Shown: piece by piece, positions 253 to 20,220 of the stretch
Layout: the number at the start of each line of letters is the position of its first letter
How positions within the stretch are numbered: the stretch's first letter is position 1
DNA from: an uncultured Ignatzschineria sp.
GTDB taxonomy: Bacteria > Pseudomonadota > Gammaproteobacteria > Cardiobacteriales > Wohlfahrtiimonadaceae
Length of the DNA stretch: 64,000 bases
Direction of reading: 5' to 3'
Assembly (NCBI GenBank): GCA_945639195.1
Contig: CALZEE010000004.1
Coordinates: 1-64,000, forward strand
Made by a program: the position numbers and the translations under genes
The notes under the pieces: model-generated
Seen by the model: only the letters and a program-made list of their open reading frames with translations
What the model was told of the DNA's origin: nothing
Databases searched by the model: none

Positions 253-306
253 TAAACCAAGAGAAACCTTCTACTTTTAAATAGCCCTAAAAAGGGGAGG
301 ATTACA
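1..306 (+). mobile_element. Right end of an IS3-family insertion sequence
   Basis: The end of an IS3-type transposase gene stops at 252 and is followed by about 54 bp of terminal sequence. The helicase reading frame on the minus strand is recognisable up to about 307 and then loses similarity, so the IS end is placed at 306. Read inward from 306 the terminus begins TGTAATCCTCCCC, fitting the TG...CA ends usual for IS3 elements. The other end and the target duplication are outside the window. Confidence 0.7.
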
Positions 307-1163
307 ATTGCCTCATCTGATTTTTCTTCGACAAATTCACGTACAGGATAAAATATTATTGGCTTAAAATACCCATCCTCTTGTGCACGCTTCAATGGAT
401 AATTAAATATTATTTTGCCTTCTATTCTCGAGCCATCATTCCTAAATGGAGTAGCCGTAAATTGGTAAATAGATTTATCTAGAAAACTCGATTTAATACT
501 TGCCCAAGTAGAAGCAGTTACATGATGCGCTTCATCAACTATTAAATGCGTACACTCTTGTACAAGATTCTTAAAGCATTCTGGGGAAAATCTTGACAAT
601 GAAGCTGCCGTTGCAATGATAACATTAGCATCTATAATCTGAGACAATTCATCAATATCATCAATTCCATGTTTGATTGTCGAAACTACTGGATTGAGAA
701 TTTCATTAGACACCAATCCTAAATCTCTTAATAATCCCAATTGCACAAATTTATTTTTTGTTTGCTCTCGTAAAGCATCAGATGGAACAATAACAAGAGT
801 TTTTTTAAATTTCCCAGCTACAATAATTGATAAAATTGTTTCAGTTTTTCCAGTACCTGTTGGCATAACAATTGTTGCGGCACTTTTTTCATCCGATCTT
901 TCATAACCAAGCGCTGCAAAAATACCACCTAATTGTGGTGGTCTCAGCCCACTAATCTGAGCTTGCTGATTTTCTTCAATAAAAAGGAAAGGGACATTTA
1001 ACCAAGAATTAAAAACTAAATCTGAAGAATGCTCTTTATTATTTAACAAAGGATAGCTTACGGTACTCTTACCAACTTTTGTTTCTTTAATTTTCCACAT
1101 ATTAAACTCCATATAGTTCAGTATGAAATTATTGATATTTTGATTAACCCATATTAAAGACAA
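307..1163 (-). pseudogene. SF2 DEAD/DEAH helicase, 5' part only, truncated by the IS
   Basis: About 285 codons of a superfamily 2 helicase. Visible motifs are motif I (M-P-T-G-T-G-K-T-E-T), motif II (V-D-E-A-H-H) and motif III (T-A-T-P-F-R). The second RecA domain (motifs IV-VI) is missing because the IS joins at 306/307; the frame runs about 19 codons further into IS DNA and stops at 249. The furthest upstream start is a TTG at 1163 directly after the HerA stop; ATG codons at 1112 and 1100 are alternatives. It is the last gene of the six-gene defence operon and probably worked with HerA/SIR2 or the methyltransferase module. Activity is unlikely in this strain. Confidence 0.75.
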
Positions 1164-2912: not shown

Positions 2913-2914
2913 AA

Positions 2915-4060: not shown

Positions 4061-4094
4061 GTACATCTCCAGTATTACTATAAATAAGGTAGGG

Positions 4095-5363: not shown

Positions 5364-7420
5364 TCATTATCCTTTTGCTGTTTTTTCTCAGCATATCTTT
5401 TTTGAATATAAGCCAATCCCTCAGCTAATCTCTTTTCAATGTTATCAATACTATCAATCGACGGCACACGACCATGATCTTCTTTAAATTGATTAATACG
5501 AGGCCATAACATAACAGCTTCTTCTTCCGTCATATTAACCCTCTGTAATGCCAAACTAGTCTTGAGTGTTTTTAGTAATGGAGCATCAATATTTTTAGAA
5601 ATGACCTCATAAGCCCCCTGAAAAGGATTTACTGACGAAATTAAATCAACACTCAAGTCATTAAGATTCACAAATCGATTACCAATATTCACAAATTGCT
5701 GACCACTATGATCACCATCCATCTTAGGTCGTATCCCGTTATCTTGATTATTTTCTGGTGTGCTTCCCTCAACAATTGCACCTTCAGGTAGAGACTCACC
5801 TGAAACCACGCCGCCATTTTGTCGAATGAATAAGTTCGTTAATAAACCTTGATGCAATTGATCAACCTCATCCTCGGATAAATCAGGATGCAACTCACGA
5901 ATAATTTTAGGAATCACAATTGTATTCACAACTTCTGTTTCGATTAATCCTTGCTCAGACCAATATGCTTGCTGTGCCTGCCCATTGTTCAATAATGTTG
6001 CAAAGATATCATCAGTGGACCCATTCAAGATATCCAAAACTTTCTTTGAAGCTGCTTTAGTGCTGTCATCCACAATTACTGTGCCAGGCGCTAATTTCTC
6101 ACCATCCATAATTGTTGAACGAGGTCTAAACGTGATATTAGGCTTTAAAATTTGTTCCATTAGTAAAGATGCGCTGATTGCTTTAAGCATCGTATTCACT
6201 GAAACAACTACATCTTCATCTGTTGCCTCTGGCTGTGGAATCAAATTAGTAAATTGTGCATGGTTTTTACCGACACAATCCCGAGTGGCGCGACCAATGA
6301 TTTGCACGATTTCTGTTAGTGAGTTTCTAAAACCTACAGTTAATGCATGTTCACACCAAGGCCAGTCAAAGCCTTCTTTAGCCATACCTAAAGCTATGAT
6401 AATATCAATATCATCCACATGGTTAACATTGCGTAGATAATTCATCACAATGGGGCGTTCCTTACTATCGTCCACGAGATCAGCAACTTTAATCAGCTTG
6501 CCATCACTATGACGCTGTAACGTAATGATATGAGTATTAGGATCTTTAGAAATAAACTCACCAATCACATCATGAATATGCCCAACTTCAGTATATTTAT
6601 TGCCCGTAGAAGCTGAAGAATTCACATTAGGAATATGGATTAATGTTTTCTTATCTGTATCTAACACTTCTTCGAGCGCACTAATGTATTTCCCCTGATA
6701 AAAATGATAGCCAATGCCTAAAGTTTTAAGATATTCATAGCCATTTAATTGCTCATAATACGTATAAGTAACCTTATCAAATTTAGCTTCATCTTCTGGC
6801 TCTAAAATTGGTACAGCATCACCTCTAAAATATGACCCTGTCATTGCAATAATATGAGTATTAGAGCCATTCATAACATCATCTATCAATTGGCCCAAGA
6901 TGTTTTCTTCACCTGCTGAAACGTGATGAAATTCATCGATGGCTAAAACAGAATCATTAAAATCTTCAGGTGAGAGCTTCTTAAATGCGTGGCGCAATGT
7001 TGCATGAGTACACAAAATAATTTGATCCTTAAGATCATCACTATTCATAAATGCGACAAAACGATCAACCTTTCCTGTGGTTTCCCCTTCGGTTAAACAT
7101 AGATTATTGCGATCATCAATGTGCCAATTGGCATAAAAGCCATGAGCCATTAAATCTGTATCTTTAAATGAGCCACCAATGGACATTTCAGGCACACAAA
7201 CAATCGCTTTTTTAAGCCCTTGCTTAACAAGCTTATCTAGTGCTAAAAACATTAAAGCTCTAGATTTACCAGAAGCGGGTGGTGCTTTAATCAATAAATA
7301 CTGACTATCTCTATATGCATAGGCTCTCGCCTGCATTTCTCGCATACCCATATTATTATTTTGGATGCTCGAGCCTGTTTGTTCATAAGATGCATTCACT
7401 AAATTAATCGTTTGGTTCAT
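5360..7420 (-). CDS. SF2 DEAD/DEAH-box helicase of the methyltransferase module
   Basis: The 686-aa product has both helicase RecA domains. Motif I is A-P-P-A-S-G-K-S near residue 50, motif II is the variant I-D-E-F-H-H, motif III A-M-T-G-S-Y, and motif VI Q-I-I-G-R-A-T-R-D. A low-complexity linker and an unassigned C-terminal region follow. It sits 15 bp after the methyltransferase stop and overlaps the GIY-YIG start. It may translocate DNA for a restriction complex, as helicase subunits do in type I and III systems. The complex with its neighbours is inferred. Confidence 0.85.
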   Translation of the reverse strand: MNQTINLVNASYEQTGSSIQNNNMGMREMQARAYAYRDSQYLLIKAPPASGKSRALMFLALDKLVKQGLKKAIVCVPEMSIGGSFKDTDLMAHGFYANWHIDDRNNLCLTEGETTGKVDRFVAFMNSDDLKDQIILCTHATLRHAFKKLSPEDFNDSVLAIDEFHHVSAGEENILGQLIDDVMNGSNTHIIAMTGSYFRGDAVPILEPEDEAKFDKVTYTYYEQLNGYEYLKTLGIGYHFYQGKYISALEEVLDTDKKTLIHIPNVNSSASTGNKYTEVGHIHDVIGEFISKDPNTHIITLQRHSDGKLIKVADLVDDSKERPIVMNYLRNVNHVDDIDIIIALGMAKEGFDWPWCEHALTVGFRNSLTEIVQIIGRATRDCVGKNHAQFTNLIPQPEATDEDVVVSVNTMLKAISASLLMEQILKPNITFRPRSTIMDGEKLAPGTVIVDDSTKAASKKVLDILNGSTDDIFATLLNNGQAQQAYWSEQGLIETEVVNTIVIPKIIRELHPDLSEDEVDQLHQGLLTNLFIRQNGGVVSGESLPEGAIVEGSTPENNQDNGIRPKMDGDHSGQQFVNIGNRFVNLNDLSVDLISSVNPFQGAYEVISKNIDAPLLKTLKTSLALQRVNMTEEEAVMLWPRINQFKEDHGRVPSIDSIDNIEKRLAEGLAYIQKRYAEKKQQKDNE

Positions 7421-7435
7421 GGTTCCATCCCCTCC

Positions 7436-10219
7436 CTAGGATTTTTTCTTTTTCTTGGCTGTTTTAGCTTGTTTTTCTTCATTTATTAGCTTTTCATACA
7501 ACTTAAAAAGATACTCAACTCGCTCAGTGCTATCTCTAAATGGTGAATCTCTATAGAGCTTCTCAACTGCACGATCTAGGTTTTCATGAGCTTCTAACAA
7601 ATCCGCAGGCATTTTATCAGGATCATAAAGATCGGCTAGGGTTTTAGCGGGATGACGTGCTCGTACTTTTAGTATTTCTTTAGCAAGCTCTTCAATTGCG
7701 GACCGACGTTGTGATCCTACATTCTGCGGCCATGGGAATGTGTTATACACAACAGTACCTGAATATCTATAGTCTTGCTTATGTCGTCCACCCACCATCC
7801 GCATCCAATCGTTATGTATCATAGATATTAAAACACCAAATTCATATGGTGTACCATTACAAACTATTAAAGAAGCATCGGAAGCTATGATACTAGAAGA
7901 TAATATCCCTATAGGAATATAATGCCTGTTATGTGTTGTGGTTTTAGGAATAAAGATATATTGTCCTGCATCAGGCTGCCTAATCTCACCAAAAACTGAT
8001 GGTGTACTAGCAAGCTTTCTGGTCTCTGGTCTGGTACTCATTAATCGAGATTGTTCTACTCGATTTATTCTTTCTCTAATAAATGGTATGAGATATAACT
8101 CCTCTAAAGCTATACCTAATAACCATAAACAATACCTTTCTCGCCCATTTATATACTCTTCTCCGCCAAAATATGGCTTAATCCAGCTTCTTGTTATTGG
8201 GTACTCCGTAGTTAGGAGATCTTTCTCTTCAATATTTAAAGAAAACGCTCCCCTATCATCTATCGCGATGTTACCCAATGTAATAGGGGAAACTCCCTTA
8301 CAAAGAGGTTTTGACCGACTTTTAATAAGTATGTTGTCTCCTTCCAATAAGTATGAATTAATATTAGAGACGTATTTAGAATGCCATTCTTCCCCTATGA
8401 GTTTATAAAGAATTTTATTTTTCCTTTCATTCTTACTTAAACCGATTATAACAACATATACCGAGGCCTTGTCTCTAGCATTATTTTTCCATAAAAATGA
8501 CTGGTAACAAAATGTTATAAAAACATTCAAAGAAAAAATAGGATCCCATAAAATAGTTGCTTGCTCACCTTGAGTGATTGAGTTCGTTGCAACTAAGGCC
8601 ATCTCAGCATTATTATTAGCAATATATTGAGCCCCTTTATAAAACCAAGCAGAAACATAGTCCAAGTTTCCTGCTCTACTTATTCCTGAAAAAATTAAAC
8701 CTATGTCTTCTTTTTTAAGAGCACTATCATTTTTTAATTTAGCATTACTTTCCTTTTTACTGAGTCTAGCCCCCTCAAATGGCGGATTACCAACGATATA
8801 AACTTCTTGCTCTTTATTCGCAGGACAGAACTCTTCCCAATCAATACGTAAACTATTAGCTTGTAAAATATTACCACTTTCATGTAATGGCAAAGTTGCT
8901 ATATGTGTATGTAACAATCGATTAAACTCGCAATTCATTTGATGCTCAGCTAGCCATAAAGACAACAATGCGATCTCATGAGCAAAGTCATCAATCTCAA
9001 TACCATAAAATTGATTCAATCGAATATTAGACATCATCATTTCAGGCGTTGCATTTAAAGAACTTAATGCTTGAAAAACACGAATTTCTAACTGCCTTAA
9101 CTCTTTAAATGCGATGATTAAAAAGTTACCTGAACCACAAGCAGGATCAAATACTCTAATATTCCCCAAGCGAATCAAAAGTTCTTTTAGCTTTTTCTCA
9201 CTGTGTCGACTTCTGATGAATTCTTCTTCCAATGGATTTAGAAACAATGGGCTCAATACTTTCATGATATTTGGTACAGATGTGTAGTGCTGCCCTAATC
9301 GTCGGCGCTGATTTTCATTAATCACAGCTTGGAACATTGACCCAAAGATATCAGGATTAATTTCTGACCAATTTAATGCACTACACTCCAATAGCATGCG
9401 ACGTGTACGAGCATCAAATGATGGCACGGTTTCTTCTTGTGCAAATAAACGACCGTTCACATAAGGGAAGTCTGTTAAATACTTCGGTGAGTTATCACGT
9501 AATTCAGAGTTGTTATTACTGTTGAGGATCTTAAATAATGATTGCAAAAATCCCTTTAGATCTGACCCATCTACTTGAGTTGTTTTTGCTAATGTATCGC
9601 TGAACTGATTTTTTTTAAAAATATTAGTGTCTTCAGCAAAAAAACAGAAGAGTAAGCGTGTTAGAAAAACATTCAGCGCATGGACTTCTTCATCTGTATT
9701 GATATTGTTACGATAGCGAATTAAATCAAACAAACGTCCTAATCGTTCAGCTGCTTTTACATCTGCTTCTTGATCAGAATAGTCAGCATCTTTTTTCAAA
9801 CCTGCTAAAGGTAAAAAGAAACCATACTCTTTATGTAACTCTATAAACGGACAATCTATTGATTCGTCATTTTCAACATCGTATGCCAAGATTTCTTTGT
9901 AATCTGTCACAATAATAAAAGTGATATTACGAGTTTTTATTATTGCTGATTGTCGCAGTTCATCCATTACGGTCAATAGATCTTCATTACCCAAAACAGG
10001 CTTAAAATAGATCCCTTTTTGGTTAGCTACCTCACCTTGATTGGGGTATTGAGCGACATTTATATTATCAAGATCGCCATTAACTGTTTTTTTCAGACGT
10101 GTAATTGTCGCTTTAGGCAATCCATATAAACTTAAAAAATCAAAAATGAAATTTTGATGATCTGCTAATTTCGTATATTTTTCTAACTTATCAAATATTT
10201 CAGTGTGGTTGACGGCCAT
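7436..10219 (-). CDS. Large class I N6-adenine DNA methyltransferase
   Basis: The 927-aa product has S-adenosylmethionine motif I V-F-D-P-A-C-G-S-G-N-F near residue 358 and catalytic motif IV V-G-N-P-P-F near residue 478, the order of gamma-class adenine methyltransferases. A preceding G-Q-H-Y-T-S segment is typical of HsdM/MmeI-like enzymes. The long C-terminal region (about 650-880) probably recognises the target, and the tail is Lys-rich. I see no convincing PD-(D/E)XK nuclease in the N-terminus, so cutting would have to come from another subunit such as the GIY-YIG protein. First gene of the defence operon; a hairpin just upstream covers its Shine-Dalgarno region. Confidence 0.85.
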   Translation of the reverse strand: MAVNHTEIFDKLEKYTKLADHQNFIFDFLSLYGLPKATITRLKKTVNGDLDNINVAQYPNQGEVANQKGIYFKPVLGNEDLLTVMDELRQSAIIKTRNITFIIVTDYKEILAYDVENDESIDCPFIELHKEYGFFLPLAGLKKDADYSDQEADVKAAERLGRLFDLIRYRNNINTDEEVHALNVFLTRLLFCFFAEDTNIFKKNQFSDTLAKTTQVDGSDLKGFLQSLFKILNSNNNSELRDNSPKYLTDFPYVNGRLFAQEETVPSFDARTRRMLLECSALNWSEINPDIFGSMFQAVINENQRRRLGQHYTSVPNIMKVLSPLFLNPLEEEFIRSRHSEKKLKELLIRLGNIRVFDPACGSGNFLIIAFKELRQLEIRVFQALSSLNATPEMMMSNIRLNQFYGIEIDDFAHEIALLSLWLAEHQMNCEFNRLLHTHIATLPLHESGNILQANSLRIDWEEFCPANKEQEVYIVGNPPFEGARLSKKESNAKLKNDSALKKEDIGLIFSGISRAGNLDYVSAWFYKGAQYIANNNAEMALVATNSITQGEQATILWDPIFSLNVFITFCYQSFLWKNNARDKASVYVVIIGLSKNERKNKILYKLIGEEWHSKYVSNINSYLLEGDNILIKSRSKPLCKGVSPITLGNIAIDDRGAFSLNIEEKDLLTTEYPITRSWIKPYFGGEEYINGRERYCLWLLGIALEELYLIPFIRERINRVEQSRLMSTRPETRKLASTPSVFGEIRQPDAGQYIFIPKTTTHNRHYIPIGILSSSIIASDASLIVCNGTPYEFGVLISMIHNDWMRMVGGRHKQDYRYSGTVVYNTFPWPQNVGSQRRSAIEELAKEILKVRARHPAKTLADLYDPDKMPADLLEAHENLDRAVEKLYRDSPFRDSTERVEYLFKLYEKLINEEKQAKTAKKKKKS

Positions 10220-10439: not shown

Positions 10440-11687
10440 ATGTTCAAAGTCATTTATACAGGTACAGATAAAAATCAACTGTTACAAGATTATTGGTCAA
10501 TGAATGCCCAAGGTAAACATGTATATTCTAAGAATGATTTATCTATTAAATTTAATAGTCCGGTGCATAAGTTAGATGAATTAGTAAGGAATCTAGGATA
10601 TGCAGTAATTACAGATGCTTCTGTTTTTTGCCCTCAATGCAATCAGCCACATCAATATTTCAGCAGGAGGGATTTAGATGACCTAATAACAGAAAATACA
10701 GTTTGTTCAAATTGCCTATCTTCTAATATTGACCAAACTATTCATGATGAATATCTATATCTCGCATCAACCATTGAAACTTACTATAAAATTTTGGAGA
10801 ATAATCAGAAAAAGTTGAGATATCCAGATACGGCTCAGCTAATTAACTCGCTCAGTTTATTAGAAATGATTTTTCTATATAACATCATTAATGAAGTGAA
10901 TCCTAGAGATATGGGAGAACTTGGCCTCAAAGCCTTTTCAAAATTCCTTCATAGTGAGCCATATAACAATATCGTAATCAAAAGCTTAATCCAAAAAGAG
11001 GTGCTTTCGTATACGCCAGATGAAACTATCAATCAACGTTTATTAGATTTTGACTTTCTTTGTGATCAATATAAAAATCGCGTATCTGATTCAAATACTG
11101 TACGCATTTGCCAAAAACTCACTGGTCCAATTATATCTACCCCAAACTATGCTTTGTGGAAAAATGATCTTATTTGGAGGCCTAGCGACTATACCTTCGA
11201 AGAGTTTTCAAAACTACTGCTTCTAAAAATTGAAGGCTATCAGATTAAATTCACAGATCTTGAACAAATATCGATATATTTAAAACAAAAAAGGGACAGT
11301 GAAGTATTATTTATATCTCAAAATATTGAGTATAATCATAAAGTTAAAGTAAATAAAAACCTCGCATTTGAAGCTAAATCCAAAGAACTATGCGAGCATT
11401 ACAACATTAAAATGATCTATGGCTATTTTTTAGCAGCTATGAATCTAAGCCTAATTGCCTTGGATCATTATCCTGATATTAAGAGAAGGAAAATTATGAA
11501 TTCAGTTTACTCTAACTGTCTCATTAGCAATAAAATTGCTCATTTTTATGAAAGAAATATGCCTAGTAACTATAACTACTCTAAAAACATTTCATTTATA
11601 GAGGCTAAGTACAACTTAGAGGATATTTGGCTAGCAACACCTGTAAATAAATTTATTTCTGTATTAATCAAAAAAATAAGCAGATAA
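10440..11687 (+). CDS. Uncharacterised zinc-ribbon protein
   Basis: I do not recognise this 415-aa family. Near residue 63 it has C-P-Q-C, and about 28 residues later C-S-N-C, a four-Cys zinc-ribbon pattern. The rest looks alpha-helical with no signal peptide or membrane segment. It is the only plus-strand gene in the island, divergent from the methyltransferase and convergent with the CRISPR array 66 bp downstream. Codon use is AT-rich like the island. It might be a regulator or another defence gene; nothing in the sequence decides this. The start at 10440 has only a weak AGG about 12 nt upstream. Confidence 0.75.
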   Translation: MFKVIYTGTDKNQLLQDYWSMNAQGKHVYSKNDLSIKFNSPVHKLDELVRNLGYAVITDASVFCPQCNQPHQYFSRRDLDDLITENTVCSNCLSSNIDQTIHDEYLYLASTIETYYKILENNQKKLRYPDTAQLINSLSLLEMIFLYNIINEVNPRDMGELGLKAFSKFLHSEPYNNIVIKSLIQKEVLSYTPDETINQRLLDFDFLCDQYKNRVSDSNTVRICQKLTGPIISTPNYALWKNDLIWRPSDYTFEEFSKLLLLKIEGYQIKFTDLEQISIYLKQKRDSEVLFISQNIEYNHKVKVNKNLAFEAKSKELCEHYNIKMIYGYFLAAMNLSLIALDHYPDIKRRKIMNSVYSNCLISNKIAHFYERNMPSNYNYSKNISFIEAKYNLEDIWLATPVNKFISVLIKKISR

Positions 11688-11753: not shown

Positions 11754-11841
11754 CTTTTAAACCACCTATTCAGCGGCACACAGCTCCAGTATTCAACTGA
11801 TTCTCGACTATTTCTTCAAAACCACCTATTCAGCGGCACAC
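11754..11841 (-). CRISPR. Minimal type I-F CRISPR array: two repeats, one spacer
   Basis: Two 28-bp repeats (11754-11781 and 11814-11841) flank one 32-bp spacer (11782-11813), giving the 60-bp period of type I-F arrays. They are identical over 23 bp and differ at two positions near one end. Read on the minus strand, positions 6-10 (CCGCT) pair with 16-20 (GGTGG), including two G-U pairs, around the loop GAATA. This is the type I-F repeat geometry, with Cas6f expected to cut after position 20. The 8-nt handles are TTTTGAAG before the spacer and TTTAAAAG at the terminal repeat. The array lies 130 bp downstream of cas6f on the same strand. No third repeat is visible on either side. Confidence 0.85.
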
Positions 11842-11970
11842 TATAGATTATATGAGAAGACTCTTGCAAAGCCAATACATTCAAAAAAATAGCGAACAAA
11901 AACCTTTATTTTCACATGCAAGATAGGTCATTGATATTATTTTAGTTTTTATTGTCGTGAGAAATAAGGG

Positions 11971-12582
11971 TTAAAACTCTGGTACGGTTGATTCAATACT
12001 TAATCCATAGGATGAAAAAGAAATATCAGTACTTGATTGACTCACTTCGACCCTTTCAATATACAATCTCACACACTGCTCTGTAGTGGCGCTACTAATA
12101 TACAAATAAGGTAGAGTGATTTCTGTCATTTTCCAATGTTGATAGCCTAACACTGCTTCTTCATACGTAATATTTTCTTGTGCAGCCTTATAAGATGCAT
12201 ACCTCTTGATTTTCTTATTTATAGCTCGATACCCATTGATACGCTTACGCTTATAAATAGCATACCGATGAGTATTTTTGGGTATTTCCCTAATAGAGGC
12301 TATATGAATGTAATCCAACCAAGGCTTTAAATATTGAACTAAATTAATCTGCTCAAGCACTGAACTAATAGGGGCAAAGACTCTTAATTTTCTACCTAAC
12401 ATCTGAATATTGTGAGTTTTGTCCGATTGATATTCAGGAAAAGATACACCTATATTTTTCTGCCCATGTACATTCCTAGCTTCTACTAATCTCAAATGCA
12501 ATTGATCATAAATTTTTGACCATAGTTTATGCAATGAAATATCTCTGTTATCCAACAAAGTTAATTCAATATAATACTTCAT
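11971..12582 (-). CDS. cas6f: Cas6f (Csy4) crRNA endonuclease
   Basis: The 203-aa product aligns by eye over its full length with Pseudomonas Csy4: N-terminal Y-Y-I-E-L-T-L, I-G-V-S-F-P-E, L-G-R-K-L-R-V, and the C-terminal S-S-Y-G-L-S followed by a V-P-x-F end. The catalytic His29 of Csy4 is matched by His29 here (D-Q-L-H-L-R-L), and the Ser/Thr-rich Y-I-S-S-A-T-T stretch sits where the active-site Ser is. It cleaves the repeat hairpin and stays bound to the crRNA 3' end. It starts 11 bp after cas5fv and is the last gene before the array. An Arg/Lys-rich helix (about 110-130) fits RNA binding. Confidence 0.93.
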   Translation of the reverse strand: MKYYIELTLLDNRDISLHKLWSKIYDQLHLRLVEARNVHGQKNIGVSFPEYQSDKTHNIQMLGRKLRVFAPISSVLEQINLVQYLKPWLDYIHIASIREIPKNTHRYAIYKRKRINGYRAINKKIKRYASYKAAQENITYEEAVLGYQHWKMTEITLPYLYISSATTEQCVRLYIERVEVSQSSTDISFSSYGLSIESTVPEF

Positions 12583-12593
12583 ATATTAATCCT

Positions 12594-13604
12594 TTAAATT
12601 AAAATATCAGAAACATAAGCTAATCCTTTTTTACCCAAATAAAAGGTTGAAACTCCAGCATTATCAATTAGACTCTGTAATTCTTTTGCTTGAGATTCCG
12701 ATATATTTAAATTAATCGTTAGTTGTCCACTCGCCTTAGTTAGCATAGACATCACTTCACCTTCACCTTTTTTCTTAACCCTAGATACGTAAGGATTACC
12801 CCAAACAATTTTTTCTGATCCAGTTGAAAATCTTTTCATGAAATTTTTAGGGGTAAAACTATTATGGGAAATACCTGTTAATCCGCCTCTAGGAGCTCTT
12901 ATCAACTTGGTATCATAGCATTCAGATAATAGATCTAATTTTAAATATAAAGCGGAACAATACAATGGAAGTACTCGAACATGATTATTTAACTCTTTTA
13001 ATGAAAACTTAGAGTATAAGCTAGATAATTTTACAGCCGCTTGTTGAATTTCAGTATTCACTAGTATATTAATTTTCTTAATTTCCTCGAATCGTTGCAA
13101 TATCTGTAATGGATCAAGTACAGGATCTACCATGGGCTCAATAGGTTCATCGTTAATAAAGCGTAGTAATTCACTTAAATCCATCCATAAAACACTCCAA
13201 AACTCTTTGGCATAAATAGCCTCTAACCAAGGATCAGCCGTCTTAATTAATCCTGTAAATGAATTTTGATCTGTGTTACCTGTAAGATTACGAATATATA
13301 CAACTTCACTACTGACAAGTGGCAGATCGATAATATCGCTATCTTGTAATATAGACTCGATTTCAGAGAAATAATAATCTGGTTTTAATCTTGCTTGATA
13401 TAGTTTTCCTTGTTCTCCTATTAAGCGATTTAATATCCCCATTACAGTATCTTTTGTAACTCGCCGTTGGATATAGTTGTTTGGGTTATTTAATAACCTC
13501 ATAGATGCAATAAAATTACGACCTTTGCTAGGTGGCTTTTCATTATTAGAACCATTTAAGAAAGAATTTCTCCATGAAGCTTCGTATTCAATAATGATTT
13601 GCAT
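12594..13604 (-). CDS. cas5fv: Cas5fv, type I-F2 (I-Fv) Cascade subunit
   Basis: A 336-aa protein. From memory it matches the Cas5 of the Shewanella putrefaciens I-Fv system: opening I-I-E-Y-E-A-S-W-R-N-S-F-L, D-T-V-M-G-I-L-N-R-L-I-G, Y-I-R-N-L-T-G-N-T-D-Q-N-S-F-T-G, and the end Y-L-G-K-K-G-L-A-Y-V. In that system Cas5fv caps the crRNA 5' handle and uses an inserted helical domain to read the PAM and hold the DNA, replacing Cas8f. No Cas8 gene is present here, consistent with this variant. It lies 11 bp after cas7fv. Subtype is assigned from remembered sequence, not a search. Confidence 0.82.
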   Translation of the reverse strand: MQIIIEYEASWRNSFLNGSNNEKPPSKGRNFIASMRLLNNPNNYIQRRVTKDTVMGILNRLIGEQGKLYQARLKPDYYFSEIESILQDSDIIDLPLVSSEVVYIRNLTGNTDQNSFTGLIKTADPWLEAIYAKEFWSVLWMDLSELLRFINDEPIEPMVDPVLDPLQILQRFEEIKKINILVNTEIQQAAVKLSSLYSKFSLKELNNHVRVLPLYCSALYLKLDLLSECYDTKLIRAPRGGLTGISHNSFTPKNFMKRFSTGSEKIVWGNPYVSRVKKKGEGEVMSMLTKASGQLTINLNISESQAKELQSLIDNAGVSTFYLGKKGLAYVSDILI

Positions 13605-13615
13605 AAAATCATCCT

Positions 13616-14599
13616 TTATTCTGCTTTAAAATACACCGCGTATTCTTGCTGTAATTCATTGTTAACCAAATGATAAGGATTCCGTTTGATACGCATCATC
13701 TTATTACTATCGTTGTAGTCTACATCTAATGTTTCTACATACATATAACCCTGAGCTTGTTGAATAACCAGGTTTTCAAGCATATTTAAAGTCTCTTTTA
13801 CCAGAATGTCTATAGAAATATTATTTAATAAAATTCCAGCCTCCCCTTCATGATAAATAGTTCCTTGTCGAACATAATTAGAGTGAAAAGTAACTTTAGC
13901 TTCTCGAGTAGAATCTAAGCTTTGAATAAATTCTTGAATACGTTCAGCAACTTGATAACCCTCCTCTTCGTGAATAATCATCGAAGCTCGATCAAACTTT
14001 TTATCGAGAGAGATAAACTGTAGTTTTTCAATATTAATGGAGCCGTATGCAATATATTCAGTGTCACCAAACGTTGTTCTTGAGAAAAAGCTATTACTTG
14101 CTACTTCATTACCATCTTTATTAAATTTTCTTTCTTTAGGTCCAGATCGACTCATTTGCTCAAAATTACCGTTATGTAGTTGATCCACAAAATCACTGAG
14201 AAATAATGGGCTAGCTCGGTGACATTGACTTTCTGGGACAGCATAACCACGGATTAAACCCGTTATTGATGCTAACGTCTCTATTAAATTATGACTTTTT
14301 ATATAATGAGAATCATAAGCATGATCACGAAACAAGTGATGGCGAATACAATTTTGGCTAATATAGAGAGGTGTTTCTTCGAAGTTTATATCATTTGCTT
14401 TTTTTAAGTATTTATAACCTGTCTCTAATTTAACTTTACCTGATAAGCTCGAATAACCCCGTAACTTAGGCAATATATGATTTTTAACAGTTAAACCGTT
14501 ATCTAACATTAAGCTAGTTGAACCATTCCAATTTACAACCCCATGCCCATAAGCGAGAATTCTAAAATCTACACTTTTTATACCTGTTATTTTGCCCAT
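13616..14599 (-). CDS. cas7fv: Cas7fv, type I-F2 (I-Fv) Cascade backbone
   Basis: The 327-aa product has I-F variant Cas7 signatures: T-G-I-K-S-V-D-F near the start, [36 protein letters not shown], and [12 protein letters not shown] near the end. Cas7fv polymerises along the spacer part of the crRNA. The start is set at ATG 14599 because AAGGAG lies 7 nt upstream, inside the end of greB, and because family members begin at this point. The frame is open to 14632. Only one base separates it from the greB stop, so greB and cas7fv are probably translationally coupled. Confidence 0.87.
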
Positions 14600-14600
14600 A

Positions 14601-15095
14601 TCATTTCTCCTTAGAGTCAATAACATTGGCATATTTAATATTTATTATTGTCCAAAACTTTGTTCCTTCCGGAGTAACAATCTCGACATCATCATCCTCT
14701 TCTTTACCCAAACATGCTTTAGCCATAGGGGAATTTAAAGAGATGTATTTACTATTCTGATAGATTTCTTCATTGCCAACGATCCGAAATGTCAATTCCT
14801 GACCATCTTCATCCTCTAGCGTAACCCACGCACCAAAATATGCTTTACCTTCTTGTTGAGGGTTATATTCAACCTTTTGAGCATCATCAAAAAGCTTAGT
14901 TAAGAATCGAATGCGTCTATCAATTTCCCGCAATTTACGTTTATTGTAGGTGTAATCTGCATTTTCAGACCTATCGCCCAAGCTTGCCGCCCAAGAGACA
15001 ATTCTTGTTATTTCTGGACGTTCCGTCCGATGAAGATAATTCAATTCGTCTAGTAGTTTTTGGTAGCCTTCGGCTGTTAATAGCTTTCTATTCAT
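14601..15095 (-). CDS. greB: GreB transcript-cleavage factor carried by the island
   Basis: A complete 164-aa GreA/GreB-family protein. The N-terminal coiled coil has the tip motif G-D-R-S-E-N-A-D-Y with the Asp and Glu needed to stimulate RNA cleavage by backtracked RNA polymerase. The C-terminal FKBP-like domain has [17 protein letters not shown] and N-S-P-M-A-K-A. Its C-terminal part differs at about half of positions from the host greB remnant at 19858-20220, so it arrived with the island. The ATG overlaps the gmtX stop (ATGA) and cas7fv starts one base after its stop. It probably replaces the greB function destroyed by the insertion; a role with the cas genes is possible. Confidence 0.9.
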
Positions 15096-15706
15096 GATAA
15101 ATGTTCCAATGCTTTTCGTATGGCGTCTAATGTACCAGTCTTAAATACTGGTTTATTCTGTTCATTCACTAAGGCGCCATACCCTGTTTCAGATAGGCGC
15201 CATTTCTCCTGAAATTCAGTACTTAGCAAGTGTTTTAAAGCTCTAACTTCTAATTCTGTTAGTTTAAAATTCACAGAAGGGTATGCTTCTCCCTTGTGAT
15301 CATAAACATCTATTCGTTGCTTAGGGGGAATCATCTCATTAATCATTGTTTTTGCCTCCTTAAGTTCCGAGGCCAATATTCTAACCAATATTTGATGCTT
15401 AGGGCTATCTATCTCAGAAATCCAGTCCTCTTCTGTCTTTGATGTTTTTCTCAATGCCTTTAACGGTTGGACAGAATCTGAAAAGGATTGAATTAAAGCT
15501 CGATATTTTTCTCCGGTTTTATTACGGATACTTTGAGCCTTTGGTACGCCTCTTTTATGTCCTAACCGAGCAATTGTTGCAATCGAGAAATCTGTTAGTC
15601 CTCGTTCTTTTTGCTCCAAGCAAATTTCATAAATAGCATCTAATGATTCTTGGATTTTATTGGAAGAGCCCGATTTCAAGGTCTCTAATAACGCTTTAGA
15701 ATCCAT
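15092..15706 (-). CDS. gmtX: Third trio gene, GmtX-like
   Basis: A 204-aa protein located directly after two tyrosine recombinases (3 bp gap) and overlapping greB by 4 bp. The first 80 residues look like a helix-turn-helix DNA-binding module (D-F-S-I-A-T-I-A-R-L-G, then K-A-Q-S-I-R-N-K-T-G-E-K-Y-R-A-L-I). A charged helical middle and a short C-terminal domain follow. Gene order, size and N-terminal pattern fit GmtX of gamma-mobile-trio elements; the positional equivalent in Tn554 is TnpC, which affects transposition frequency and orientation. The family call rests on context and memory and has moderate certainty. Confidence 0.6.
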   Translation of the reverse strand: MDSKALLETLKSGSSNKIQESLDAIYEICLEQKERGLTDFSIATIARLGHKRGVPKAQSIRNKTGEKYRALIQSFSDSVQPLKALRKTSKTEEDWISEIDSPKHQILVRILASELKEAKTMINEMIPPKQRIDVYDHKGEAYPSVNFKLTELEVRALKHLLSTEFQEKWRLSETGYGALVNEQNKPVFKTGTLDAIRKALEHLS

Positions 15707-15709
15707 ATA

Positions 15710-18430
15710 TTACCCCTCAATAAGTCTAGCTGTATTCAATAAGACCAGCTCTAAATCAGTAGCCGTGATTCGCTCTGCATAATCAAGCTCTTTAAATTTA
15801 ACCTTGCACTCAACAACATCTACAACCTTTTCCCATGAATTTAAACGTGATACTAACAGCTTAAATATCTCATTACCTGCATGTAATTGTTGCTCCTTAG
15901 TTAAAGAGAACATTTGAGGAGCCATGTCATTAAATACAGTCATCTTATCAAGCAGCTGACTACGCGGATAAATTGCCCTATCGGCATTACAAGATCTATA
16001 AATTACAGCATTAGAGCATACCTCTTGTAACTGATGAAAATGTCCGACCTCTTCCATTTCAATAATGACCTCGGTATCTTGCGTAGCTATAAGACTAAGC
16101 TTATCATCTAACGCTACTGGTTTTTTCACAGCAATAAGCGATTGACATCGTGTAATATACGCATATGCCGACTGAATATCACATAACAACATATCTAGCT
16201 TCTTAGCAGCCGTTTCATATTCAGATTCAATATTTCTCAGTTCTGTTTCGGCAAGAAGCCTCTCTTTCTTCTTAGTAAAATCCTGTTGCATTACATCTGC
16301 TATATATTCTTCTTCATCGAGTTTATTAAGCTCTTCTGTAATTCTGTTAATACTTACTTGTAACTTACTACAGGTTTCTGATTGAGAATTGGATTCTAAA
16401 AGAATTTCATTCGTGATAGCTAAAAGCCCCCCTAAAAATGCAGGCCCAGTTATAAAGTGCCTACACCTTAAACAGTTCTGCACCCCCAAATAACCATTAG
16501 GGGTTGGGGCATTAAAGCTACTTGTTTGAATCTGAGGCCCACCATCATCACATCTTGAAGCTGCGTAAGGGCAAATGCCATAATCTCTAAAAACATAGTT
16601 GCCAGCTGGAACATCGTTTGTAAGTGAACGTAATAGCTCATCATTACTCCCTACCAACTGATTTTTTAAATCTTCAATTTTATTTTGTTCAATAGCAGTC
16701 TGCACTGCACTAGCTTCAGATTTTAATGCTAATTTCTCCCCTTCATTTAATCTCTTTCTAATTTCTGCATTTGAAACCTTGCAGTAATAAATCGACATAA
16801 TGATTGAGCTATGGCCGACAATTTTCATAACGATTTCGATGGGCATACCCATTTCAACTACATAAGCAGTAATCAAACTCACTCGCATGCTATGTGGAGT
16901 ATATTTTGATGTATAATTACTCAAGCTTGCCATATTACCATTTGATTCCGCAAGCTTAAGATTAGAAGGCTGGATGTGATATAACGCAGCTGCCAATCTA
17001 GGTGTTAAGGCATTTGCAACTGTCGCTGGCTCAAAATCATTAAATCGACGAAATAGGAAACAATTTACTCCTCTTGCTTTCAGTTGAAGTGCATTCATAT
17101 TGGTCCGCTTGCACTTAGACCATGCACTTGGCTTAGAAATCGGGTTATATTTTTGTTGCCACTTTCTTAATCTAACCAGCCAATAAGCCAAGTCCTCTGG
17201 TATCCAAGGGATTGTATAACCAGCTCCATTATTATTCGTTTTATTCGTTGTCGTATAAATACCTAATTGGTCATCTTGCATTCTTGAGACAAAGGCCTGA
17301 TTCTTCGTGATCCCCGCCCAAAGCGATGGATTTTCAGCCCAAACAATTTTGCCATGAGAATCAATATCAACAATGTATTCATCAGCTTCTCCTGAATCAT
17401 TATAGGCAATTTGGCGACCCCTTAAAGGGACTTTAGTCAATGCATAAGTATGTAACCAATCAACTGGTGACCATAAAAGAGTATGCCCATCACTAATTCG
17501 ATAAATACAATCTGGATCTGTTGGGTCAATTAATTTGCTATCAACTCTTAGCCAATCTGCATCAAACTTCTGCAAATGACTCAAATCTTGAAATGTTTTT
17601 GCATCAAAAGGTATGATCCATTCCTGAACTTTTTTAACAAAATGGTACTGCAAACAAGGCTTTGTAGTTTCAGATCTAGCATTAGCAGAAACAGGCTCCT
17701 GTTGAGTTAGAAGCAATGAACATGGATTTCTAGCATTCGCAATACGAGTAACAATACCTGTATCTTCATCCTCTTCGGTTAAATCGGTATCAATAATATA
17801 ATCAAGAAATTCGTTCACAGACACAACGATTTTACGCTTCATATGCGCAGTAGGTAAAGTCTCTATAATTTCCCTAAATGGCTTAATATCGAACGTTTCC
17901 TGCGTCAAAAATTCATAAGGAGATCTGCTCTGATCAAAGGGAATAATATAGAGTTTTACAAAACGACATAGATGACTTTCCTTCGTTCCACCACCTTTTG
18001 CTTTCAACATAAATCTATTGATAGCATCTGCCCACATTTCATATTCTTTCGGAATAAAACTAGGTTTAAAAGGCTCCTCTTTACCTAAAAAAGCATACCA
18101 GTTTTCCCACTCATTCGGATATGCCGTCTGAGGGTCAAAAGAGATAGCTGCATCATTACTATCTGTCGCAAACTTCTTATACTCTTTTGCGTTTTTGAGA
18201 TTCAATGGTGCTATAAGCTTTTTCAAATCCTGATACTTCATAAAATCTGGAATATCAAAAAAGTCTCTATAACTAACCCAATCCTCGTAAATTCTTTCTG
18301 GGTGTGCAGGAAGCCCATGACGTCTATAATACTTTTTATATAAAGCTGAGTTAGTTAACCCCAACTTCTTACATTCTGCTTTAAGATCAGTATAATTAAA
18401 TTCTTTCTTAACTACTTCTGCATTGTCCAT
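15710..18430 (-). CDS. gmtZ: Large tyrosine recombinase, GmtZ-like
   Basis: The 906-aa product is far longer than a phage integrase. The catalytic domain lies around residues 330-570: box I Arg in P-L-R-G-R-Q, the H-x-x-R box in T-P-H-S-M-R-V-S, then V-G-H-S-S and the nucleophile region I-Y-Y-C-K-V. A Cys-rich segment follows (C-P-Y-A-A-S-R-C and N-C-L-R-C-R-H) around 620-665 and could bind zinc. A coiled coil lies near 690-760 (E-E-L-N-K-L-D-E-E-E). Size and position after a smaller recombinase match GmtZ (compare Tn554 TnpB). Its start overlaps the end of gmtY by 19 bp. Confidence 0.78.
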   Translation of the reverse strand: MDNAEVVKKEFNYTDLKAECKKLGLTNSALYKKYYRRHGLPAHPERIYEDWVSYRDFFDIPDFMKYQDLKKLIAPLNLKNAKEYKKFATDSNDAAISFDPQTAYPNEWENWYAFLGKEEPFKPSFIPKEYEMWADAINRFMLKAKGGGTKESHLCRFVKLYIIPFDQSRSPYEFLTQETFDIKPFREIIETLPTAHMKRKIVVSVNEFLDYIIDTDLTEEDEDTGIVTRIANARNPCSLLLTQQEPVSANARSETTKPCLQYHFVKKVQEWIIPFDAKTFQDLSHLQKFDADWLRVDSKLIDPTDPDCIYRISDGHTLLWSPVDWLHTYALTKVPLRGRQIAYNDSGEADEYIVDIDSHGKIVWAENPSLWAGITKNQAFVSRMQDDQLGIYTTTNKTNNNGAGYTIPWIPEDLAYWLVRLRKWQQKYNPISKPSAWSKCKRTNMNALQLKARGVNCFLFRRFNDFEPATVANALTPRLAAALYHIQPSNLKLAESNGNMASLSNYTSKYTPHSMRVSLITAYVVEMGMPIEIVMKIVGHSSIIMSIYYCKVSNAEIRKRLNEGEKLALKSEASAVQTAIEQNKIEDLKNQLVGSNDELLRSLTNDVPAGNYVFRDYGICPYAASRCDDGGPQIQTSSFNAPTPNGYLGVQNCLRCRHFITGPAFLGGLLAITNEILLESNSQSETCSKLQVSINRITEELNKLDEEEYIADVMQQDFTKKKERLLAETELRNIESEYETAAKKLDMLLCDIQSAYAYITRCQSLIAVKKPVALDDKLSLIATQDTEVIIEMEEVGHFHQLQEVCSNAVIYRSCNADRAIYPRSQLLDKMTVFNDMAPQMFSLTKEQQLHAGNEIFKLLVSRLNSWEKVVDVVECKVKFKELDYAERITATDLELVLLNTARLIEG

Positions 18431-19749
18431 TCTATACCTTTCAAAGCTTCCGTTACTTCTTCCAAAGTCGGCTTAATATATACTAAACATGAGTGGGGGC
18501 TTTTATGATGCATTGCCTTCTGTATTGCAATTTGATCTAGTCCAGCTTGTCTTGCTCTAAAACCATAAGCATGTCTATGTCCATGTTCCGTAGTTCCATA
18601 CTCTTTCTTCACCACGAGTCCTATTTTCTCTATGGCCCTACGATGCAATCTCTGAAAATTTTTCAAAGTTTCAGGCATACCTTTAGAGTTAGTAAACGCA
18701 AAAGGATGGTTTTCACCACGAGCTGGCTCCACTCTCTGATATTTTAAATAATTCACCCATACCAACAAAAACTCTTCTGCTTTATGGGGAGGGTTAAAAA
18801 CAACCTCAAAATAACCTGACTTAGAGGTCAACAATGGATTTTTCCAACCAGCATATAACCTTTCAGATCCTAAATAAGTATTTCTCGGCTTATATGATGT
18901 TGTTGCTAAAAGATATTCTCTTCGATTTTTAAAACCGACATCAGGTGCCTCTCCTAAGGATGGATGATAGACTCTCACCAAAGCTTCTTTAGGATAATTG
19001 GGATTAAGGGTAATATCAGAAACATAAATGTGAAATACCTCACTTTTACGTAATCCACCATAGTTTAGGAGCATCGCGATAGCTTGAGATTTGTAATCGG
19101 GGGTACCATCTCTTTTTAAAAACCCCAAATACAATAACCGCTCAAGATGCTGCTCAGGAAAACGAACTGCATATTCTGTTGAGAATACGTTCTCATTGAA
19201 ACTTTCAACCAAACGGACTCTTTTATGCTGTTCAATCTGCTCGCTATGATTTGTTAAATGATTCAAAAATACATTTGACTGCTTATGATAATAAGCACAC
19301 CAATTCAACCGCTCTTCATAACTTGTAGCTTTTCTAAAAGGATTCACTCTTACTGCTGAATAGTCATCTTGAAGCACAAGATAGTCAGTGTAATGGGTAA
19401 TATGAAACAATAGATTATTAGCATCTCGAAGAGATCTAGGTCTCCAATAAAGCCCCAAGGGATCTGTAAAAGTTTCAGGATCTATTGACCCTACCACTAA
19501 GGTTTCAGTGAATGATTTTAAAGCATCTGTAGCCTTTTTTATTTCAGGAACTGCATCTAAGTATTTTAGGAGTAAACTTAAAGCAAAACATGATCTCTCT
19601 TTCCAAGAATCACTCTTATAATTAAACCAAGCTAAATAACGCAAATGAGAAATGATCAAACCTTTTTCAGTAAGTAGCGCAGGCAAAGAGTAAGTTAAAT
19701 TACTTGAGCAGTTTTTATAATTGGTGTATATTTTTTTAACAAATGGCAT
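18412..19749 (-). CDS. gmtY: Tyrosine recombinase, GmtY-like
   Basis: The 445-aa product has the complete tyrosine-recombinase set: Arg in N-Y-G-G-L-R-K-S-E-V, H-x-x-R-type box in G-H-R-H-A-Y-G-F-R-A-R, His in M-H-H-K-S-P-H-S and nucleophile Tyr in L-V-Y-I-K-P near the C-terminus. The N-terminal 180 residues form the helical core-binding region. It is the first gene of the operon, starting 109 bp inside the island's right end, as expected for a recombinase acting on that end. With the next two genes it makes the trio typical of gamma-mobile-trio elements (Tn554 TnpA is the analogue). The enzyme class is certain; the GmtY name is moderately so. Confidence 0.8.
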   Translation of the reverse strand: MPFVKKIYTNYKNCSSNLTYSLPALLTEKGLIISHLRYLAWFNYKSDSWKERSCFALSLLLKYLDAVPEIKKATDALKSFTETLVVGSIDPETFTDPLGLYWRPRSLRDANNLLFHITHYTDYLVLQDDYSAVRVNPFRKATSYEERLNWCAYYHKQSNVFLNHLTNHSEQIEQHKRVRLVESFNENVFSTEYAVRFPEQHLERLLYLGFLKRDGTPDYKSQAIAMLLNYGGLRKSEVFHIYVSDITLNPNYPKEALVRVYHPSLGEAPDVGFKNRREYLLATTSYKPRNTYLGSERLYAGWKNPLLTSKSGYFEVVFNPPHKAEEFLLVWVNYLKYQRVEPARGENHPFAFTNSKGMPETLKNFQRLHRRAIEKIGLVVKKEYGTTEHGHRHAYGFRARQAGLDQIAIQKAMHHKSPHSCLVYIKPTLEEVTEALKGIEWTMQK

Positions 19750-19814: not shown

Positions 19815-19857
19815 TAAAGAGTCATTCATAATAGTATACTTATTAGTGGGGTTATAA

Positions 19858-20220
19858 TACCAATTCAACAAGCAAAAACTGCGTGAAATTGATCGCCGTG
19901 TGCGCCATTTACGAAAGCGCCTCGAAGTATTACGCCCTGTTCCTTACGCGCCTGAGCAAGAAGGGAAAATCTATTTTGGCGCATGGGTAACCTTAATTGA
20001 CGATGAAGATAAAACAATCTTTTTCCGCATTGTGGGCGCCGATGAATTAGCACACCATAAAGATTACTCATCTATCAATTCTCCTATTGCCAAAGTCTGT
20101 TTAGGAAAAGAGATTGATGATGAGATTGTGGTTAAAACTGAATTGATGCAAAAAAAGTGGTATGTAGAAAATATCTTTTATGGCTCTCCAGAAGCCATCG
20201 CAGATAAGATCTCTTCATAA
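19858..20220 (+). pseudogene. greB: Host greB, 3' part cut off by the island
   Basis: An open frame of 120 codons plus stop that begins inside the GreB coiled coil ([14 protein letters not shown]) and continues through the whole C-terminal domain (E-Q-E-G-K-I-Y-F-G-A-W-V, F-R-I-V-G, N-S-P-I-A-K-V). The preceding in-frame codon is TAA at 19855-19857, belonging to the island. The N-terminal catalytic tip G-D-R-S-E-N-A-D is missing. A GTG at 19900 could start a shorter product, but it would lack the coiled coil and is unlikely to function. The break falls immediately after the most conserved stretch of the gene, a sensible attachment target. Confidence 0.9.

What the first reader, a model, noticed from the sequence alone, without database searches (positions are those of the whole stretch)
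11754..19749. Tyrosine-recombinase trio, GreB and a type I-F2 Cascade with one spacer in a single operon
Seen: gmtY-like, gmtZ-like, gmtX-like, greB, cas7fv, cas5fv and cas6f follow each other on one strand with overlaps or gaps of 1-11 bp, and a one-spacer array lies 130 bp behind. Known: type I-F3 CRISPR-associated transposons pair a nuclease-less Cascade with Tn7 proteins for RNA-guided insertion; gamma-mobile-trio islands carry defence cargo. Inference: translational coupling of recombinases to the crRNA complex suggests that the Cascade serves the element, for instance guiding target choice, protecting or silencing a competing element, or controlling its own recombinases. I know of no described tyrosine-recombinase counterpart of Tn7-type systems.
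Basis: partly seen in the sequence, partly recalled or inferred. Interest (0 to 1): 0.95.

Follow-up and report, generated by a model that had tools for sequence, protein, structure and literature searches.

The report
Nuclease-less CRISPR in greB-hopping mobile element
A bacterial mobile element that sits inside the gene greB and carries its own spare greB also carries, in the same row of genes, the RNA-guided DNA-binding half of a CRISPR system without its cutting and memory-making genes, which is predicted to silence rival DNA rather than cut it or steer the element.

Summary
gmtY-gmtZ-gmtX-greB-cas7fv-cas5fv-cas6f is one tight run of genes, followed by a one-spacer I-F-type array (28-nt repeat, 32-nt spacer). 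It is not chance. A Wohlfahrtiimonas relative (56-75% protein identity) has the same seven genes, no cas1 or cas3, a nine-spacer array and the same gene behind it. A third genome has a 99.5% identical copy of the examined 4.1 kb, with four spacers, the last being the window's.

The new point is that the element sits inside the chromosomal gene greB, between the codons for D47 and Y48, and the operon greB is its replacement. Four of 18 family genomes show the same split. Cascade-free relatives have trio plus greB, and one is split at the same codon, so the site does not depend on Cascade. I found no credible spacer match to greB, the element ends or a known invader. RNA-guided insertion is therefore unlikely.

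Of the 80 closest Cas7fv loci examined, 78 have cas3 and only these two have trio genes. I read it as the Cascade half of an I-F2 system captured by a Tn554-like element that uses greB. It is under purifying selection and probably blocks rival DNA without cutting. New variant of a known kind; targets unknown.

The parts
18412..19749 (-). gmtY, tyrosine recombinase (445 aa)
   Evidence: NF040693 509 bits, PF00589 36 bits; H-x-x-R..HH..Y stretch visible in the C-terminus (motif recalled)
15710..18430 (-). gmtZ, large recombinase (906 aa)
   Evidence: NF047926 778 bits, PF13009 279 bits
15092..15706 (-). gmtX, small trio protein (204 aa)
   Evidence: NF040692 225 bits
14601..15095 (-). element-borne greB, complete (164 aa): replacement of the disrupted host gene
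   Evidence: TIGR01461 216.5 bits; 47-59% identical to the intact host greBs of 13 family genomes, 73% to the element greB of G289/L009
13616..14599 (-). cas7fv (327 aa)
   Evidence: NF040577 432.5 bits; aligns over 1-326 with Cas7fv of solved I-Fv complexes 5o6u, 9g44
12594..13604 (-). cas5fv (336 aa) with complete helical domain
   Evidence: PF20158 179 bits; aligns 1-334 with Cas5fv of 5o6u
11971..12582 (-). cas6f (203 aa), His29 kept
   Evidence: PF09618 148 bits; His29 aligned (its catalytic role recalled)
11754..11841 (-). one-spacer CRISPR array: repeat 11814-11841, spacer 11782-11813, terminal degenerate repeat 11754-11781
   Evidence: same last spacer and same degenerate last repeat in G283
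11842..11970 (-). leader, with a promoter-like site ending 5 nt before the first repeat
   Evidence: the promoter scan as a whole is not above chance (35 found, 33.3 expected)
10440..11687 (+). orf415, convergent with the array, no known family
   Evidence: 57% identical orf at the same place in L009; 16 proteins including itself found among 5.8 billion
19829..19857 (.). right terminus of the element; inverted copy of the left terminus (AACCCC, spacer, TATACTATT)
19858..19863 (.). 6-nt core TACCAA (host Tyr-Gln codons) at the right junction; ACAGCT stands at the left junction on contig C2
   Evidence: joined flanks give one open greB frame
19858..20220 (+). 3' part of the host greB, codon 48 onward, left by the insertion
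   Evidence: the 5' part (codons 1-47) is on G000:C2 1844-1984, minus strand
249..10219 (-). defence-type cargo on the far side: DEAD/ResIII, HerA 1164-2912, SIR2 2915-4153, GIY-YIG 4095-5363, helicase 5360-7420, MmeI-like type IIG enzyme 7436-10219

Best explanation
This is a gamma-mobile-trio element inserted in greB that carries a spare greB and, in the same gene row, the crRNA-guided DNA-binding half of a type I-F2 CRISPR system without cas1 or cas2-3, and that complex is predicted to bind and silence rival DNA without cutting it. Shown: the insertion between greB codons 47 and 48, the spare greB, the gene order conserved in a distant relative, no I-F cas1 or cas3 match in the host assembly, differing spacers in near-identical copies, and a Cascade-free relative at the same codon. 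Inferred: GmtY and GmtZ, helped by GmtX, cut out a circle joined by a 6-nt core and insert it into greB, as Tn554-like elements do. The spare greB likely restores the lost host function. The Cascade module was probably captured once from an Acinetobacter-type I-F2 system and placed between greB and orf415. Cas6f would cut the array transcript; Cas7fv and Cas5fv would bind the crRNA and a matching target; the R-loop would block transcription or replication of competing mobile DNA, as type IV-A does without cutting. New spacers would have to come from a Cas1-Cas2/3 pair supplied in trans by some host.
For: Element and site: greB split at one codon in 4 of 18 family genomes (G000, G280, G283, G289), both halves found in all four; joined flanks of G000 give an intact greB frame; matching inverted ends and 6-nt cores. 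Mobility: a Halomonas trio-greB relative is deposited both inside a plasmid (47,888 bp) and as a separate 47,894-bp circle joined by the 6-nt core GGTGTA. Replacement gene: greB follows gmtX in 4 of 4 relatives opened whose GmtY or GmtZ is 43-65% identical: G112, G334 (decayed), Halomonas (two identical copies counted once), P. aeruginosa plasmid. Cascade kept for use: cas7fv, cas5fv, cas6f open in window and L009, dN/dS 0.11-0.15 with dS high; near full-length against solved I-Fv structures; repeats with the I-F stem, 5-nt loop and 8-nt tail. One capture: the eight Cas7fv rows labelled GMT form one side of a branch, SH-aLRT 100. Changing array: G283, 99.5% identical over 4.1 kb, has three further leader-side spacers ahead of the window's one; L009 has nine. 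No cutter: no I-F cas3 or cas1 match in any of the four greB-split genomes. Setting: SIR2-HerA and a type IIG enzyme beside it, SIR2-HerA in L009 too.
Against: No credible protospacer was found for any of the 12 distinct spacers, so the targets, and with them the defence role, are unproven. Nothing here shows that the genes are expressed or that silencing occurs. A Cas2-3 could act in trans in other hosts: 10 of 18 family genomes have I-F cas1, and the same 10 a cas3 match, 6 of them over the cut-off. Type IV-A uses a DinG helicase (recalled); no such helper was looked for. Of the eight Cas7fv rows labelled GMT in the tree, only four are linked to trio genes by locus or shared contig length (P0001, P0003, P0005, L009). 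In G280 neither Cascade nor the spare greB was found; the middle of that element seems unassembled. The left end of the window's island lies on another contig, so contiguity is inferred.
Confidence: 0.55

Rival explanations
1. Split immunity: the element brings the Cascade and array, and hosts with a resident I-F system supply Cas1 and Cas2-3 in trans, so that it is ordinary cutting immunity made portable.
For: Arrays have grown at the leader side or turned over without cas1 on the element, so some adaptation machinery has probably worked on them. I-F cas1 is in 10 of 18 family genomes. The window's Cas7fv is 58-70% identical to that of the 78 loci that have cas3.
Against: None of the four greB-split genomes has an I-F cas1 or cas3 match, against 10 of the other 14 (Fisher p 0.023; few, related and partly incomplete genomes). 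The element's repeats differ strongly from that of the one family I-F2 array looked at, L010.
Confidence: 0.2
2. Cascade regulates a host or element gene through a fixed crRNA, as CreR RNAs (recalled) or the chromosome-targeting crRNA of type IV-A1 do.
For: The window has a single spacer; the oldest spacer is kept in two genomes. Regulation by a natural type IV-A1 crRNA is described (PMC11551745, abstract start in a search listing).
Against: Against the reconstructed greB site and the left end of the element the spacers' best matches lie close to those of shuffled spacers (largest excess 2.6 of 32). In the rest of the window island the longest seed run was 13 nt, G283 spacer 3 near window 6874 (flank CA; best overall match of that spacer in the island 20 of 32; no control on that long stretch). 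L009 shares no spacer.
Confidence: 0.09
3. Cascade gives the trio a second, RNA-guided targeting mode, a tyrosine-recombinase analogue of CRISPR-associated Tn7.
For: Same gene row and strand; no nuclease, as in I-F3 elements (recalled). The 6 nt at the far junction are unlike greB in the three known Cascade carriers, so these copies may have come from other sites.
Against: Insertion is at one greB codon in four of four genomes with differing arrays, and a Cascade-free relative uses the same codon. Cascade-free copies also sit on plasmids with no split greB annotated beside them, so other sites do not need Cascade. No spacer has a credible match to an attachment site; the nearest was L009 spacer 6 in the G000 greB region, 20 of 32 with a CC flank, shuffles 18.0.
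Confidence: 0.07
4. Decaying passenger: a chance remnant of an I-F2 locus with no present use.
For: cas1 and cas2-3 are missing; the last repeat is degenerate; the window has one spacer only.
Against: Three intact open frames at 56-75% identity in L009 with low dN/dS; ten repeats there, the first nine identical; gene order and the following gene conserved.
Confidence: 0.07

Closest known systems
Gamma-mobile-trio (GMT) islands (Mahata et al. 2024, Nat Microbiol; not held; known here from NCBIfam models, recall and passages of PMC12039261)
   Same: Adjacent gmtY, gmtZ, gmtX over the curated cut-offs; defence cargo.
   Different: greB as target and replacement gene, and a Cascade row behind it. 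Whether that paper reports greB is not known to me.
Tn554-like transposons, above all Tn552-II with tnpABC and a target-gene-like gene (PMC12486829, passages)
   Same: Recombinase trio, insertion into a coding gene, a homologue of the target gene behind the trio, a short core brought in from elsewhere, circular intermediate.
   Different: Found in Staphylococcus; 7-bp core there, 6 nt here; no CRISPR genes mentioned in the passages seen. Sequence kinship of the recombinases was not tested.
Strand-biased circularizing integrative elements and GInts (PMC10214605, PMC5385486; abstracts, and passages of the first)
   Same: Several tyrosine-recombinase-type genes plus a small protein at one end, circles, 6-bp footprint (SEs).
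   Different: Other core genes (intA-tfp-intB-srap; ginABCD). The word CRISPR does not occur in the first paper's main text.
Type I-F2 (I-Fv) CRISPR-Cas, solved as 5o6u/5o7h
   Same: cas7fv-cas5fv-cas6f order, I-F repeat layout.
   Different: No cas1, no cas2-3; diverged repeat; lies behind a recombinase trio.
CRISPR-associated Tn7 transposons (I-F3; recalled)
   Same: Nuclease-less I-F Cascade on a mobile element.
   Different: No Tn7 genes among the proteins scanned; site choice does not follow the spacers.
Tsy and Tn6022 with TnsF (PMC10293859, passages)
   Same: Tyrosine-recombinase element that aims at one conserved gene (comM).
   Different: Target greB, spare target gene, CRISPR row; protein kinship not tested.
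VPI-6 and other Vibrio islands with type I-F systems (PMC6360697, passages)
   Same: CRISPR-Cas on an island moved by a tyrosine recombinase; some V. cholerae variants with cas7fv and cas5fv.
   Different: The VPI-6 system is called canonical and has cas1; no recombinase trio in the passages seen.

Membership tests
Gamma-mobile-trio element | gmtY, gmtZ and gmtX adjacent and in order | tested here: met
   all over the curated cut-offs
Gamma-mobile-trio element | mobile island with definable ends | tested here: met
   host gene split, matching ends, empty site restored by joining flanks; far part on another contig; movement itself not seen in this genome
Tn554-like transposition | short core exchanged at the junction | tested here: met
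   6-nt cores differ between junctions in four genomes and are equal in G112; circle core in Halomonas
Tn554-like transposition | sequence homology of the recombinases to TnpA/TnpB/TnpC of Tn554 | not tested
   only generic Phage_integrase and Integrase_2 matches
Type I-F2 CRISPR-Cas | cas7fv, cas5fv, cas6f, no cas8f | tested here: met
   no Csy3 match in the own genome; Cas8f itself was not searched for
Type I-F2 CRISPR-Cas | cas1 and cas2-3 in the locus | tested here: not met
   absent from the locus and not found in the genome
Type I-F2 CRISPR-Cas | 28-nt repeats, 32-nt spacers | tested here: met
CRISPR-associated transposon (I-F3 kind) | Tn7 genes (tnsABC, tniQ) with the Cascade | tested here: not met
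   none among the 20 window proteins scanned with Pfam; the part of the island on contig C2 was not scanned
CRISPR-associated transposon (I-F3 kind) | insertion next to a match of a spacer | tested here: not met
Target-gene-like (tgl) carrier | element brings a homologue of the gene it disrupts | tested here: met
   complete greB behind gmtX, host greB split
Type IV-A-like nuclease-free interference | silencing without cleavage | not testable with these tools
   needs an experiment

The most novel reading that the evidence does not exclude
A tyrosine-recombinase counterpart of CRISPR-guided Tn7: the trio normally inserts into greB by protein recognition, and the Cascade gives it a second, RNA-guided route into plasmids or phages, which would explain why Cascade-bearing copies arrive in greB with 6-nt cores that do not come from greB.
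Probability: 0.07. Interest if true: 0.97.

Novelty: new variant of a known kind. Interest (0 to 1): 0.7.

Why it matters
It shows a mobile element that keeps only the DNA-reading half of a CRISPR system beside the enzymes that move it and a spare copy of the gene that it breaks. It gives a further setting, besides Tn7 and plasmid type IV systems, for asking what a Cascade without nuclease is good for. It also suggests a testable rule for part of the GMT islands: greB is both the landing site and the spare part.

Tried and rejected
RNA-guided insertion: rejected as the main reading, see rivals. Chance cargo in one genome: rejected by L009. The G000:C6 repeat-like match is a single 30-nt stretch, not an array in the part viewed. 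Four IMG/VR matches to L009 spacer 4 are 23-25 of 32 with the mismatches mainly at the far end; not taken as protospacers. Phage matches of the L009 array: 80 records at E up to 10, of which 30 were listed; repeated at E up to 5, all 20 records listed, best E 0.6, most of them on the repeat. orf415: no Pfam, NCBIfam or PADLOC match, AlphaFold model too poor to use (pLDDT 41); kinship to the 425-aa protein at the same place in G112 is inconclusive (probability 3%, E 0.014). G384, G281 and G290 carry other kinds of GMT; no greB match lies in their fetched stretches, except the separate partial greB on another contig of G290. Contig-length matching of protein lists links trio and Cas7fv in W. chitiniclastica J7560 and in one metagenome contig, but clusters hide members, so it was not used to claim absence. 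Only the best 80 of 161 Cas7fv relatives in genome contigs were kept by the tool and examined. In an early note I wrote 12 intact host greBs; the recount gives 13. I had also noted G334 as trio plus greB; it lacks gmtZ.
Full report
What is there. On the minus strand of the window lie gmtY, gmtZ, gmtX, greB, cas7fv, cas5fv and cas6f, overlapping or 1-11 nt apart, then a leader of 129 bp and a one-spacer array. Family scores are over the curated cut-offs where those exist, with Cas5fv named by Pfam and PADLOC. The window's 28-nt repeat folds as a 6-bp stem with a 5-nt loop (6 of 200 shuffles fold as well), the layout of the I-F repeat of L010, an Ignatzschineria I-F2 locus, but with a very different sequence. 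The host is of the Ignatzschineria-Wohlfahrtiimonas group, judged by named relatives.

The element is inside greB. Next to the gmtY end, on the plus strand, is a greB that begins at codon 48. Codons 1-47 are near the end of contig C2. Joining the two flanks in a script gives one open greB frame with the motif GDRSENADYQFNK. The break is just behind the loop that holds the acidic residues D41 and E44 of GreB (their role is recalled, not tested). The same split, with both halves found, occurs in G280, G283 and G289. Of the 18 family genomes, 13 have an intact host greB, 4 have the split one, and G290 shows only codons 1-67. Thus the spare greB in the operon stands in for the gene that the element breaks. 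It is 47-59% identical to the 13 host greBs and 73% to the element greB of G289, so it is a lineage of its own, not a fresh copy.

Ends and cores. Left junctions read AAAGAACCC or close variants, right junctions the inverse of TTATAACCCC, both followed inward by TATACTATT or close variants. Between the host Asp (Glu in G112) codon and the left end stand 6 nt: ACAGCT (G000), TCACGC (G283), TAAGAT (G280), CAAGAA (G289), TATCAG (G112). At the right junction the native Tyr-Gln codons follow, or Tyr-Lys in G289. Only in G112 are both cores alike and like greB. By analogy with Tn554-like elements and SEs, where a core is brought in from the last site (PMC12486829, passages; PMC10214605, passages), the other four copies would have come from sites other than greB; this is inference.

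Relatives without Cascade. GmtX was found in 4 of 369 class genomes: the own one, G112, G334 and G384. G112 has trio and greB, no cas match, and its host greB is split at the same codon at both ends of an 18,779-bp island. G334, on a 3,244-bp contig, is a decayed copy: parts of gmtY and gmtX, no gmtZ, an intact greB, no cas match on that contig. G384, G281 and G290 have trios only 23-35% identical in GmtY or GmtZ and no greB beside them. Among plasmids, GmtZ relatives over at least 80% of the query occur in 7 of 144 matching records. I opened four of the seven: two Halomonas THAF12 records and one P. aeruginosa plasmid have gmtY-gmtZ-gmtX-greB with no cas annotated in the stretch; Marinobacter has the trio without greB. 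The Halomonas pair is telling: the 47,894-bp 'plasmid' b equals the 47,888-bp element in plasmid a plus the 6-nt core GGTGTA, so b is most simply the excised circle. Hence circle formation, the greB site and sites on plasmids do not need Cascade.

The Cascade module. A scan of 84,980 species genomes with a Cas7fv alignment gave 161 relatives, of which the tool kept 80. Of these 80, 78 have cas3 beside cas7fv, and two, L008 and L009, have trio genes and greB instead. L008 is the 4,340-bp G283 contig, so only part of gmtZ and no gmtY is on it. L009, from G289, has the same seven genes and order at 75, 70, 72, 74, 75, 67 and 56% identity, and orf415 at 57% in the same place. In a separate sample, 4 of 274 class genomes have Cas7fv: the own one and three with cas3 beside it. 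Cas5fv is in 4 of 72,556 plasmid records; the three opened have cas1 and a Cas3 gene. In viral contigs 1 relative was found, with cas3. In the family, Cas7fv is in 7 of 18 genomes: G000, G283 and G289 with trio genes, and four others that also have I-F cas1. In the protein lists, the Cas7fv and GmtX of W. chitiniclastica J7560 (tags 06670 and 06655) share a contig length. In a tree of 171 Cas7fv rows, the eight labelled GMT rows form one side of a branch (SH-aLRT 100, quick method) on a stem of 0.35, within a group rich in Acinetobacter rows (four of the eight labels are assumed from similarity). Between window and L009 dN/dS is 0.11, 0.15 and 0.15 for cas7fv, cas5fv and cas6f, and 0.09 and 0.07 for gmtY and gmtZ; dS is high (1.4-3.1), and for gmtX and greB it is saturated.

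The arrays. Window: one spacer. G283, 99.5% identical over 4.1 kb: four spacers, the last being the window's, with the same degenerate last repeat. L009: nine spacers, eight distinct. So there are 12 distinct spacers, and the G283 array has gained, or the window's has lost, three at the leader side. I-F cas1 and cas3 matches are absent from G000, G280, G283 and G289; cas1 is in 10 of 18 family genomes. The exclusion has Fisher p 0.023, on few and related genomes, three of the four being 93-94% complete.

Targets. The arrays were compared with 50,697 phage and 72,556 plasmid records and 18 family genomes; nothing credible (best phage E 0.6; best plasmid E 3). For 7 of 12 spacers I scanned IMG/VR with patterns: six found nothing, one gave four partial matches that I reject. 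Against the fetched loci the best non-self match was 26 of 32, for G283 spacer 3 in two host chromosomes, without a CC flank. Against the empty greB site and the left end, spacers score close to their shuffles (largest excess 2.6); the nearest to a candidate is L009 spacer 6 in the G000 greB region, 20 of 32 with a CC flank against 18.0 for shuffles. One 13-nt seed run of G283 spacer 3 near window 6874, flank CA, has no control.

Reading. The recombinases and ends explain the site; greB explains how the host bears it; the Cascade is an added, maintained function. With no I-F nuclease found in the genome, the simplest use is binding that blocks transcription or replication of competing DNA, as type IV-A does (abstract starts in a search listing). 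This step is inferred. Trans-acting Cas2-3 remains the best rival.

Print. I found no paper in the held library that joins a GMT or other tyrosine-recombinase trio with a nuclease-less Cascade, by the searches, of which I saw the listings, with passages or abstracts of seven papers. The GMT paper itself is not held, so greB insertion by GMT islands may already be known there.

Noticed in passing
NZ_CP045401.1 (L209) and NZ_CP045400.1 (L204, L208, L229): Halomonas plasmid pTHAF12_b looks like the excised circle of the trio-greB element in pTHAF12_a: 47,894 = 47,888 + 6 bp core.
   Followed up: yes
window 1164-4153; L009 14795-17733: SIR2-HerA pairs whose best PADLOC models differ are cargo of both Cascade-bearing elements.
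   Followed up: partly
window 7436-10219; L194 18437-20000 (runs on into L195): MmeI-like type IIG restriction enzyme-methyltransferases of one PADLOC family (PDLC03598) ride on the window element and on the Cascade-free G112 element.
   Followed up: partly
window 14601-15095; L009 9473-9946: The element GreB of the two Cascade-bearing lineages has Thr right behind the insertion codon (NADYT), while the four Cascade-free element GreBs looked at have NADYQ: perhaps protection against self-insertion.
   Followed up: no
G281:C1 891018 and 3023293 (L152, L153): Two copies, 99.97% identical over 13.2 kb, of a different GMT element in one genome, without greB in the fetched stretches.
   Followed up: partly
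L009 13079-13110 and 13139-13170: Two adjacent identical spacers, a duplication of one repeat-spacer unit.
   Followed up: no
window 10440-11687; L156 2-1024: orf415 belongs to a small family (16 proteins with itself); a 31% relative lies at the left end of the greB-inserted element in G280.
   Followed up: partly
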